Positions 802-3,046 of a stretch of DNA of 11,616 nucleotides are shown here, in pieces. The notes below the pieces were generated by a model that worked only from the letters and a program-made list of their open reading frames with translations, did no database searches and was not told the DNA's origin. The position numbers and the translations under genes are program-made. Each line of letters starts with the position of its first letter. The first letter of the stretch is position 1. Origin of the DNA: Thermoanaerobacterales bacterium (GTDB lineage Bacteria > Bacillota > Thermosediminibacteria > Thermosediminibacterales > Tepidanaerobacteraceae); the NCBI GenBank assembly GCA_012839145.1, contig DUNY01000450.1:1-11616 (forward strand). Direction: 5' to 3'.

Positions 802-1569
802 ATGGAAAAAGCTATAATAGGCGGTACCGGCGTATATGAAATCGGTAAATCCTCTCAGCAAGAAATCAAAACCGAATATGGTAGGGTTATTGTAGATATT
901 GCAAAGATAAACGGTGAGGAAATTGCTTTTTTAGCAAGGCACGGCAAAGGACACTCAGTCCCGCCTCATTTAATAAATTACAGAGCTAACATGAGAGCCT
1001 TAAGGGACTTGGGTATAAAATACATATATGCTACTTGTGCTGTAGGATCCTGTAATGAAAGCTTTGTTCCTAGTGATGTGGTGGTGTTAAAAGACTTTAT
1101 AGATTTTACCAAGGTCCGTCCCCTTACTTTTTATGAGGGCAGTAAAAATGGCGTGGCCCATGTGACTATGGATGCTCCTTATTGTCCAAATTTACGGGAA
1201 ACATTTTTTAAATGTGCACAAAAGACAGGTCTTCAAATAAAAGGTCATGCCGTATATGTAAGTACGGAAGGCCCTCGGTTTGAAACTGCTCATGAAATTA
1301 AGATGTACAAAATGTTAGGGGGAGATGTAGTTGGTATGACTAATGTACCTGAAGTGGTGCTAGCCAAGGAACTGGGTATGTGCTATCAGGCGGTAGGGAT
1401 AATTACCAACTGGTGCACAGGTATCAAGGGCGATGTCATAGATCACGATATCAAGGGGATAATGGAAAAAAACAAGGCACTTGTTACTGAAACCTTTATC
1501 CTTGCCTTGAACAGTGAAAAACTTTCTCAATATGCATGCAAATGTAAAGCTTCTTTATTAAAACTGTGA
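802..1569 (+). CDS. MTAP-family purine nucleoside phosphorylase, probable S-methyl-5'-thioinosine phosphorylase
   Basis: This 255-residue protein belongs to the MTAP/PNP phosphorylase family, which cleaves methylthio-purine nucleosides with phosphate to a free base and 5-methylthioribose-1-phosphate. The ATG at 802 is chosen over an in-frame TTG at 769 because AGGAGGGTC at 790-798 is ideally placed and the family N-terminus (an EKAIIGGTGVYEIG segment) starts here. Phosphate-site elements are T9 in GGTG, R46-H47 in RHGKGH and PPHLINYRAN (54-63). The nucleoside site has TEGPRF (155-160) and GMTNVPE (178-184). At the purine-recognition position, where adenine-specific MTAPs have Asp (TDYD), this protein has N203 in TNWCTG; Asn there is typical of 6-oxopurine enzymes. 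That residue and the upstream MTA deaminase suggest MTI, giving hypoxanthine, as substrate (inference). A plain MTA phosphorylase (mtnP) is the alternative. The stop lies within a GTGA immediately before the structured RNA. Confidence 0.88.
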   Translation: MEKAIIGGTGVYEIGKSSQQEIKTEYGRVIVDIAKINGEEIAFLARHGKGHSVPPHLINYRANMRALRDLGIKYIYATCAVGSCNESFVPSDVVVLKDFIDFTKVRPLTFYEGSKNGVAHVTMDAPYCPNLRETFFKCAQKTGLQIKGHAVYVSTEGPRFETAHEIKMYKMLGGDVVGMTNVPEVVLAKELGMCYQAVGIITNWCTGIKGDVIDHDIKGIMEKNKALVTETFILALNSEKLSQYACKCKASLLKL

Positions 1570-1827
1570 TTAGTGTAGAAACCCTTCTTAGGTGAAGATG
1601 ACGGAAAACGATCCCTTTTAAGCAAGATCTAATAGCGGGCGGTCCTACACGCTGCCCCTACAAGGGAAAACGTAGCAGGGTCAGCGTGTAGGACGCATGA
1701 TGACGGGCACTCGGTAGGACGCCGAATTGCCGCAAGCCCCTGAGTAGTGTAGGACCAAGTTAAAAGCAACAGGTCTTGTTTTAGGGAGTGGTGTCGTCAT
1801 CTTTACCGGAGCAACTTTATACACTAA
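1570..1827 (+). ncRNA. Large structured RNA, HEARO (IscB/IsrB omega-RNA)-like candidate
   Basis: This gap of about 280 nt has no gene but holds nested long helices. P1 pairs 1570-1577 with 1820-1827 (8 bp). P2 pairs 1591-1604 with 1794-1807 (14 bp, two G-U). P3 pairs 1642-1654 with 1682-1694 (13 perfect bp) and is capped by CCC/GGG and CTAC/GTAG. A smaller arm has GGCA 1706-1709 with TGCC 1728-1731 and TCGG 1711-1714 with CCGA 1722-1725. Another has CCCT 1738-1741 with AGGG 1783-1786 and GACC 1753-1756 with GGTC 1772-1775. It is visibly more GC-rich than its flanks. There is no U-run after P1 and no pairing to the downstream ribosome site (1844-1848), so it is not an obvious attenuator. The size, the multi-helix architecture closed by a terminal stem, and the start just after GTGA fit HEARO RNAs, which are often found without their nuclease gene. 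The strand and the family are inferred; the helices are seen. A cis-acting leader of the next gene is the main alternative. Confidence 0.7.
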
Positions 1828-1852
1828 AGCCAAATTTATAACTGGAGGAATA

Positions 1853-3046
1853 ATGTTGAGAAAAGACTACGGTTTTGATACCCTTTCAATTCATGGAGGG
1901 ACCGAGGAAAATAACCCCAAAAATGCTTTAAACCCCCCGATATTTATGACATCTACTTATATATTTGATGATGTAAAAGATGCCCAAGACATTATGAACT
2001 TTGAAAAACAGGGATATATTTATACAAGGGGCAATAATCCCACATTACAGCTCTTTGAGAAAAGAATGGCCGCTTTGGAAGAAGGAGAGGAGGCTGTCGC
2101 TTTCGCGTCCGGAATGGCTGCAATATCGTCGGTTTTATTTTCATTTCTATCACCGGGGGACAACTTGATAGTCCATAAAACCCTCTATGGCTCAAGCTTT
2201 ACTGTGACACATAAACTCCTCCCCCAATATCATATAAACTGTAAAAGCGTGGATTTTACCCAACCTGAGACTGTAGAAGCAGCTATAGATAAAAATACGA
2301 AGGTCCTGTATTTTGAAACACCCTCAAATCCAAACCTAGCAATAATTGATATGGAGCGGATAGTGAAAATAGCAATGGCATATGATGTCAAAATTATTGT
2401 TGACAATACCTTTGCTACCCCTTATTTTCAAAAGCCCCTTTCTTTCGACGTAGATGTTGTAGTCCATAGTGCAACGAAGTATATATGCGGTCATGGTGAT
2501 GCCCTGGGAGGTGTTGCGGTATCAAAGGATACGGAGTATATACAAAAGCTGAAGTTTGACTATATGTGTGAATTCGGGGGAGTGATGAGTCCCTTTAACG
2601 CATGGCTAATGTTAAGGGGATTAAAAACGCTGGGTCCTAGGATGCGGCAGCATGAAGCTAATGCCATGTGTATTGCGAAATTTTTAGAAAGTCATCCAAA
2701 AATCGAAGTTGTTATGTATCCGGGGCTTGCAAGCTTTACAGGTCATGAACTAGCAAGAAGGCAAATGGACGGTTTCGGAGCAATAATAAGCTTTGAGGTA
2801 AAAGGTGGTATAGAAGCGGCGAAAAAGTTAGTAAACAGTGTTCAGCTAGCCAAGCTTGCTGTGAGTTTGGGCGATTGTGAAACCCTGATAGAACTCCCGG
2901 CAGCCATGACCCATGCCGGGTATCCGAAAGAGAAGCTGCATGAGTTTGGTCTTACAGAGAGTATGGTCAGACTTTCGGTGGGGATAGAGAATGCGAAAGA
3001 TATTATCGAAGATTTGGATAAAGCCTTGAATGCTTCAGGTGCTTAG
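1853..3046 (+). CDS. PLP-dependent Cys/Met metabolism enzyme, methionine gamma-lyase/cystathionine gamma-lyase-like
   Basis: This 397-residue protein has the full length and motif order of the Cys/Met metabolism PLP family: cytosolic tetramers that do gamma-elimination or gamma-replacement on methionine, cystathionine or O-acylhomoserine. Visible are YTRGNNPT (57-64; Tyr and Arg hold the phosphate of the neighbouring subunit's PLP), FASGMAAI (84-91), TLYGSSF (110-116, stacking Tyr112), PSNPN (157-161), IVDNTFATP (182-190, Asp184 to the PLP nitrogen), the PLP lysine K209 in HSATKY, and the C-terminal SLGDCETL and RLSVGIE segments. Overall similarity is greatest to methionine gamma-lyase, with an HGD after the lysine and an MSPFNAWLMLRG block. 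The cysteine that typical methionine gamma-lyases carry in LYGC is S114 here, so cystathionine gamma-lyase or O-acetylhomoserine sulfhydrylase activity is also possible. The ATG at 1853 has GGAGG at 1844-1848. The structured RNA lies directly upstream, and the next gene starts 43 nt after the stop. Confidence 0.85.
   Translation: MLRKDYGFDTLSIHGGTEENNPKNALNPPIFMTSTYIFDDVKDAQDIMNFEKQGYIYTRGNNPTLQLFEKRMAALEEGEEAVAFASGMAAISSVLFSFLSPGDNLIVHKTLYGSSFTVTHKLLPQYHINCKSVDFTQPETVEAAIDKNTKVLYFETPSNPNLAIIDMERIVKIAMAYDVKIIVDNTFATPYFQKPLSFDVDVVVHSATKYICGHGDALGGVAVSKDTEYIQKLKFDYMCEFGGVMSPFNAWLMLRGLKTLGPRMRQHEANAMCIAKFLESHPKIEVVMYPGLASFTGHELARRQMDGFGAIISFEVKGGIEAAKKLVNSVQLAKLAVSLGDCETLIELPAAMTHAGYPKEKLHEFGLTESMVRLSVGIENAKDIIEDLDKALNASGA

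What the first reader, a model, noticed from the sequence alone, without database searches (positions are those of the whole stretch)
1570..1827. Stand-alone large structured RNA between the phosphorylase and PLP-enzyme genes
The stretch is non-coding but holds perfect 13-bp and 14-bp helices enclosed by an outer 8-bp stem, plus two further arms, and is more GC-rich than its flanks. It matches no common riboswitch I know (no S-box, T-box, TPP, cobalamin or lysine signatures). Size and layout are most like HEARO, the RNA of IscB/IsrB RNA-guided nuclease elements. No nuclease gene is present, so it could be an orphan omega-RNA left by a mobile element, an RNA acting in trans with a nuclease elsewhere, or an undescribed leader of the methionine gamma-lyase-like gene.
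Basis: partly seen in the sequence, partly recalled or inferred. Interest (0 to 1): 0.72.

Follow-up and report, generated by a model that had tools for sequence, protein, structure and literature searches.

The report
Degenerate mobile TwoAYGGAY-like hairpin element
The stretch is not a guide RNA of an RNA-guided nuclease but an old, partly scrambled copy of a small jumping DNA element whose folded core is related to a known RNA family of unknown function that is suspected to bind the regulator protein CsrA.

Summary
The structure is real (z -4.65) but is one copy of a dispersed repeat: 31 BLAST matches in its own genome, and matches in 9 of 60 relatives. Nineteen aligned copies form 94% of the cells of a 49-pair fold, with double changes at 30 pairs. 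HEARO does not appear even at E 10. Homologues of the window copy pass the Rfam cut-off for TwoAYGGAY, RF01731; the window copy does not. In one relative, TwoAYGGAY-type copies have terminal inverted repeats, and 8 of 9 repeat pairs are flanked by a duplicated terminator hairpin. The window element splits a phosphorylase-lyase gene pair; 5 of 5 relatives with that pair lack it. TwoAYGGAY loops carry GGA, the CsrA signature. Of 50 TwoAYGGAY-positive Bacillota genomes 48 encode CsrA, against 237 of 348 negatives, but a second, 61-genome comparison shows no significant link. In the window copy a private inverted duplication buries one GGA. Best reading: a decayed non-autonomous transposon with a TwoAYGGAY-type core. 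CsrA binding is untested.

The parts
1567..1830 (+). the whole element (ends approximate): degenerate copy bounded by terminal inverted repeats, RNA-like strand +
   Evidence: BLAST family of 31 matches in the own genome; end repeats by comparison of copies
1570..1581 (+). left terminal inverted repeat (TTAGTGTAGAAA; family form about TTGATTNNNGTGTANAAA)
   Evidence: family pattern with up to 1 mismatch found 21, 29 and 21 times in G000, G005 and G010, against 4, 2 and 3 for the backward-read control
1816..1827 (-). right terminal inverted repeat
   Evidence: 12 nt, 92% complementary to 1570-1581
1591..1603 (+). outer helix P1, 5' strand
   Evidence: conserved among copies
1795..1807 (+). outer helix P1, 3' strand
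1621..1629 (+). helix P2, 5' strand (helix 1)
   Evidence: position read from the sequence; family helix
1772..1780 (+). helix P2, 3' strand
   Evidence: position read from the sequence; family helix
1642..1659 (+). private inverted duplication of hairpin 1 sequence, replacing the family's 5' segment
   Evidence: pairs with 1677-1694; both arms only in the window copy among 19 own-genome loci
1664..1755 (+). conserved twin-hairpin core recognised by the family covariance model
   Evidence: model R1: 61.6 bits, E 4.2e-13, model positions 34-126 of 155
1682..1702 (+). hairpin 1 of the twin-hairpin tip, GGA at 1691-1693; buried in the predicted fold of this copy
   Evidence: loop TAGGACG in the model alignment; GGA unpaired probability 0.004-0.007
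1704..1732 (+). hairpin 2 of the twin-hairpin tip, GGA at 1717-1719 in an exposed loop
   Evidence: unpaired probability 0.97-1.0 for the stretch AGG at 1716-1718
802..1569 (+). upstream gene, phosphorylase superfamily (MTAP-like by my reading)
   Evidence: PF01048, E 7.3e-39
1853..3046 (+). downstream gene, Cys/Met metabolism PLP enzyme (methionine gamma-lyase-like)
   Evidence: PF01053, E 1e-145

Best explanation
The feature is an old, decayed copy of a non-autonomous transposon (MITE-like) bounded by terminal inverted repeats, inserted between a phosphorylase gene and a methionine gamma-lyase-like gene in a Tepidanaerobacteraceae genome. Its core is a divergent relative of the TwoAYGGAY RNA (RF01731): a long stem ending in two hairpins whose loops hold GGA. 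Mechanism. (1) Shown in a relative: TwoAYGGAY copies are discrete units between duplicated terminator hairpins, sharing their terminal repeat with longer elements. (2) Inferred: a DDE-type transposase acting in trans moves them by structure-dependent insertion at terminator hairpins. (3) Inferred: when transcribed, the twin GGA loops present paired sites for a CsrA dimer, so copies could act as CsrA decoys. In the window copy a private inverted duplication buries the first GGA loop, so this copy is probably only partly able to do so. It is not HEARO. The confidence given is for the identity (transposon copy with TwoAYGGAY-type core, not HEARO); step 3 alone I put at about 0.35.
For: Dispersed repeat: 31 matches in the own genome, 9 of 60 relatives; covariance model R1 finds 18 of 61 genomes, own included. 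Link to TwoAYGGAY: L028 44.8 bits and, two loci of G008 at 50.0 and 44.8 bits, over the cut-off of 43; conversely R1, built from this family, matches 19 of 42 loci that the Rfam model found. Fold: 94.1% of cells paired, 30 of 49 pairs with double changes, 0 of 500 shuffles as high on either, slid controls at most 10 pairs. GGA loops: in alignment A3, 18 of 19 at loop 1 and 19 of 19 at loop 2. Mobility: 9 terminal-repeat pairs in G056, 8 flanked by direct repeats of a palindrome, 7 of these 8 being RF01731 matches; contig ends with the same terminal repeat have flanks that are reverse complements of each other, L110/L128 and L118/L125. Empty site: 5 of 5 loci of relatives with both genes adjacent lack the element. 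CsrA: own genome has one; 48 of 50 RF01731-positive genomes against 237 of 348 negative ones, Fisher p 7e-6. A published model allows whole stem-loop duplication by structure-dependent transposition of the IS1272 kind (PMC5678879, passages).
Against: The window copy itself reaches no TwoAYGGAY match in Rfam even at E 10. No target-site duplication is recognisable at the window copy, nor beyond chance at most Tepidanaerobacteraceae copies. No transposase gene with this terminal repeat was found in the family: the one candidate followed (L148) was a solitary end. In G056 the interior of the longer element is not in the held assembly. Against CsrA: G202 (94% complete, 6 matches) and G254 (75% complete, 1 match) have no CsrA match; in the 61-genome sample 15 of 18 R1-positive and 31 of 43 other genomes have CsrA, p 0.52; own-genome copies keep GGA at loop 1 in only 7 of 18; no promoter-like site inside the three elements scanned; copies lie at least as often against as with neighbouring genes.
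Confidence: 0.8

Rival explanations
1. A purely DNA-level MITE: the palindrome matters only for transposition, the RNA has no function, and the apparent covariation comes from template-switch correction of imperfect palindromes rather than from selection on RNA. (A rival to step 3 of the best explanation, not to the identity.)
For: Both strands fold well. Double changes far outnumber wobble intermediates (94 cells with double changes; 22 G-U cells). Loop inversion is seen (L025 and L005 have the complement in loop 1). The excess of G-U over A-C is weak: 22 to 11 and 59 to 37. No bias to run with neighbouring genes; divergent gene pairs are rare (3 of 66 resolved).
Against: Unpaired GGA letters of loop 2 are among the only invariant columns across 30 diverse copies, which palindrome correction would not explain. 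CsrA co-occurrence in the 398-genome sample.
Confidence: 0.45
2. An orphan HEARO or other omega-RNA of an IscB/IsrB/TnpB nuclease.
For: Size, multi-branch shape and multi-copy spread in genomes resemble it.
Against: No HEARO match at E 10; terminal inverted repeats and duplicated targets are unlike IS605-type elements (recalled); no recurrent neighbouring gene at 77 loci.
Confidence: 0.02
3. A cis-regulatory leader of the methionine gamma-lyase-like gene.
For: It ends about 25 bases upstream of the gene, on the coding strand.
Against: Absent from 5 of 5 relatives with the gene pair; homologues sit by unrelated genes, in either orientation.
Confidence: 0.04
4. A REP/REPIN-like element moved as single-stranded DNA by a Y1 (HUH) transposase.
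For: Hairpin-rich, intergenic, multi-copy; the slight wobble asymmetry would also fit a strand-specific DNA hairpin.
Against: In G056 the units have terminal inverted repeats and duplicated targets, which HUH elements do not make (recalled).
Confidence: 0.07

Closest known systems
TwoAYGGAY RNA, Rfam RF01731 (clan CL00106)
   Same: Two adjacent hairpins with GGA loops on a long stem; homologous loci pass its cut-off; multi-copy in several Bacillota genomes (20 matches in G053, 9 in G056).
   Different: The window copy does not reach the model and has a rearranged 5' side. The papers seen describe a structured RNA of unknown function, not a mobile element (passages only).
CsrB/RsmY/RsmZ-type CsrA-sequestering sRNAs
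   Same: GGA in hairpin loops, in pairs; a CsrA gene in the same genome. Gardner and Eldai already proposed that TwoAYGGAY binds CsrA (PMC4333381, passages).
   Different: No binding data, no promoter found, dispersed in many copies, in Bacillota rather than Gammaproteobacteria.
MITEs, and IS1272/IS1182-type structure-dependent transposition
   Same: Short, non-coding, terminal inverted repeats, shared with longer elements; insertion at stem-loops with the whole stem-loop duplicated is one pathway of a published model (PMC5678879, passages).
   Different: A conserved, structured interior found across Bacillota families; the transposase is unknown, so the IS family is not established.
HEARO (RF02033) omega-RNA
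   Same: Size class and dispersed occurrence.
   Different: No sequence/structure match, different ends, no associated gene seen.

Membership tests
TwoAYGGAY (RF01731) | score over the Rfam gathering cut-off (43 bits), window copy | tested here: not met
   no TwoAYGGAY match up to E 10 on 1550-1860
TwoAYGGAY (RF01731) | score over the cut-off, homologous copies of the same repeat family | tested here: met
   L028 44.8; G008 50.0 and 44.8; L036 42.4 and L024 37.5 are below
TwoAYGGAY (RF01731) | two adjacent hairpins with GGA loops | tested here: inconclusive
   met in the family alignment (loop 1 18 of 19, loop 2 19 of 19); in the window copy both GGA are present but loop 1 is buried in the predicted fold
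HEARO (RF02033) | match to the Rfam covariance model | tested here: not met
HEARO (RF02033) | linked or trans iscB/isrB gene | tested here: inconclusive
   no recurrent flanking gene at 77 loci; the rest of the genome was not searched for iscB
MITE | terminal inverted repeats, no ORF, short length | tested here: met
   in G056 units of 263-272 bp
MITE | target duplication or empty site | tested here: met
   target duplication in G056, 8 of 9; empty gene pair in 5 of 5 relatives for the window copy, though no duplication is seen at the window copy
MITE | transposase of a partner element with the same ends | tested here: inconclusive
   longer elements with the same ends in G056; interior not assembled
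CsrA-binding sRNA | CsrA gene in the genome | tested here: met
   G000:C301:2774-2923, E 5.2e-20
CsrA-binding sRNA | physical binding to CsrA and expression as RNA | not testable with these tools
   needs a binding assay and RNA data

The most novel reading that the evidence does not exclude
TwoAYGGAY is a transposon-borne CsrA sponge: a family of non-autonomous elements that insert into transcription terminators across Bacillota and thereby scatter paired CsrA-binding hairpins through host transcripts, so that transposition itself titrates or rewires a global regulator; the window copy is one such insertion in a methionine-salvage-like operon, since partly silenced by an inverted duplication.
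Probability: 0.25. Interest if true: 0.8.

Novelty: new variant of a known kind. Interest (0 to 1): 0.5.

Why it matters
TwoAYGGAY has been a structured-RNA family of unknown function since its description in 2010. Recognising it as a mobile, terminator-targeting element explains its copy number and scattered sites, gives a concrete partner to look for (a transposase with the same ends), and makes the CsrA-decoy idea testable. It also warns that covariation in palindromic mobile elements is not by itself proof of an RNA function, and removes an apparent orphan omega-RNA from the list.

Tried and rejected
HEARO and other Rfam families on the window: nothing at the lenient threshold except chance matches. 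Viral contigs with the core pattern: 0 matches. Plasmid and phage records: no match. The genome contigs pattern scan gave 43 stretches, many in unrelated phyla and not followed up, probably chance for a 19-letter pattern. A candidate insertion sequence in G010 (L148) proved to be a solitary end beside an operon. The search for the interior of the longer G056 element found only contig edges. Target duplications at Tepidanaerobacteraceae copies: none beyond shuffles in most. Wobble asymmetry as a test of RNA against DNA: weak. The GGA-loop count in Rfam-found loci (62 of 65 hairpins in 43 of 45 loci, two too short; 0 of 62 on the reverse complement) is partly circular, because the model selects for GGA. 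In the 398-genome run only 6 candidates per genome were scored, so it misses positives: G005 had 2 matches and none.

Full report
What was checked. The stretch 1570-1827 is an intergenic, strongly folding region (z -4.65, 0 of 100 shuffles) between a phosphorylase-superfamily gene and a Cys/Met-metabolism PLP-enzyme gene. The reverse strand folds about as well, which already suggests a long DNA palindrome.

It is a repeat. BLAST of the stretch gives 31 matches in its own genome, the best after itself at 80% identity over most of the length, and matches in 9 of 60 related genomes (the tally of 10 of 61 includes the own genome). A covariance model (R1) built from 19 copies finds 17 copies in the own genome and matches in 18 of 61 genomes, own included. 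It recognises the window copy at 1664-1755 with 61.6 bits; the 5' part is not recognised, and the window copy has a private inverted duplication there. Both arms of that duplication occur in the window copy alone among the 19 own-genome loci scanned.

The conserved fold. In the 19 copies, 94.1% of cells of a 49-pair structure are standard pairs and 30 pairs show changes on both sides; no shuffle of 500 reached these two values, and slid structures give 10 or fewer such pairs. RNAalifold on a set of 25 copies gives 33 pairs, 23 with double changes. The structure ends in two adjacent hairpins whose loops hold GGA: 18 of 19 at loop 1 and 19 of 19 at loop 2. In an alignment of 30 copies from several families the only invariant columns are a C, the GGA of hairpin 2 and a following G. 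Caution: wobble intermediates are few, and loop 1 is found in its complement form in L025 and L005, both expected if imperfect palindromes are corrected by template switching. The covariation therefore does not by itself prove an RNA function. The excess of G-U over A-C is 22 to 11 and 59 to 37, which is weak.

Relation to TwoAYGGAY. The window copy matches no relevant Rfam family at E 10. But L028 scores 44.8 bits with RF01731, over its cut-off of 43, with L036 at 42.4 and L024 at 37.5, and two loci of G008 score 50.0 and 44.8. In the other direction, R1 matches 19 of 42 loci that were found with the Rfam model. HEARO does not appear in any of these Rfam searches. TwoAYGGAY is multi-copy: 20 matches in G053 and 9 in G056; 50 of 398 sampled Bacillota genomes carry it.

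Mobility. In G056, of 18 loci given to the script, 9 distinct pairs of terminal inverted repeats (CAGNNTGTNGACAAA, up to 3 mismatches) spanning 263-272 bp were found; 8 are flanked on both sides by the same palindrome, the stem-loop of a terminator, differing from locus to locus. Seven of these 8 are RF01731 matches; the eighth (L115) is not in the Rfam list. In L266 only the stem is the same on the two sides. The ninth pair (L129) has 3 mismatches at each end and no such flank. One RF01731 copy there (L264) gave no pair, and one at a contig edge was not tested. The same terminal repeat also ends longer elements that break the assembly; the flanks of L110 and L128, and of L118 and L125, are reverse complements of each other, as expected for one element between duplicated palindromes. 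The interior of these is not in the held assembly, so that it encodes a transposase is inferred. A published model for IS1272, of the IS1182 family, foresees duplication of a whole target stem-loop as one pathway (PMC5678879; passages). In Tepidanaerobacteraceae the ends are about TTGATTNNNGTGTANAAA, found 21, 29 and 21 times in three genomes against 4, 2 and 3 for the control, also on shorter units with other interiors. No partner element was found there.

The insertion in the window. Of 11 loci with the lyase gene, six (own included) have the phosphorylase gene next to it; the five others have shorter spacers without the element, and R1 finds nothing in the ten loci of relatives. Duplicated target sequence is not recognisable at the window copy. 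Over 33 copies from the family and class and 40 Rfam-found copies, flanking genes run with the element in 18 cases, against it in 27, converge in 18 and diverge in 3, with 7 unresolved. No flanking gene family recurs at more than 3 of 77 loci (the first run had left out near-identical pairs). This is the picture of an element that settles behind genes, not of a leader.

CsrA. The GGA loops are the CsrA-binding signature, and Gardner and Eldai predicted in print that TwoAYGGAY binds CsrA (PMC4333381, passages); the discovery paper lists it as a probable RNA (PMC2864571, passages). New here: of 50 RF01731-positive genomes 48 encode CsrA, against 237 of 348 others (Fisher p 7e-6; high-quality genomes 43 of 44 against 222 of 311). 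This is not corrected for kinship; the exceptions are G202 (94% complete, 6 matches) and G254 (75% complete, 1 match). The 398-genome run scored only 6 candidates per genome, so some negatives are false. In the 61-genome sample, R1-positive genomes have CsrA in 15 of 18 cases and the others in 31 of 43, p 0.52; the three without (G001, G007, G008) are 84, 82 and 68% complete, and G026, counted as having it, has only a match under the cut-off. Own-genome copies keep GGA at loop 1 in 7 of 18 and at loop 2 in most. In the window copy, GGA of loop 1 is paired with probability over 0.99 and the loop 2 site is open. So the association is suggestive, not decisive.

Literature. Seven papers hold the word TwoAYGGAY, five of them listed; I read passages of those five. 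None of the passages speaks of mobility. Searches for CsrA with mobile elements gave no paper on this subject in the listings. MITE-derived sRNAs are known from Coxiella (PMC10969869, passages). That the mobility of TwoAYGGAY is unreported rests on these searches alone.

Verdict. The thing is a degenerate copy of a TwoAYGGAY-type, terminator-targeting non-autonomous transposon. The CsrA role is a prior proposal that this work supports in part and does not settle.

Noticed in passing
L224, L226 (upstream of the lyase gene): The same intergenic spot in two relatives carries a different palindromic repeat of the GGGGACGGTTCTTTGACTCA kind (L224; a variant in L226), as if the spacer collects mobile palindromes.
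   Followed up: no
L155, L163, L150: Short units of about 105-125 bp with the same terminal repeats but other or deleted interiors, in G005, G010 and the own genome.
   Followed up: partly
G011:C44:2419-2560: One copy lies about 250 bp from the csrA gene of that genome (csrA at C44:2021-2170); may be chance among 15 matches.
   Followed up: no
L094, L101 (G028:C15): Two TwoAYGGAY copies in tandem about 290 bp apart (both found again by R1).
   Followed up: no
L218, L219: Upstream of the lyase gene in G006 and G010 there is a short stretch resembling the end of the phosphorylase gene but no BLAST match to the gene; possibly a remnant.
   Followed up: no
G202: A 94% complete genome with 6 TwoAYGGAY matches and no CsrA match: the best counterexample to a strict CsrA link.
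   Followed up: no
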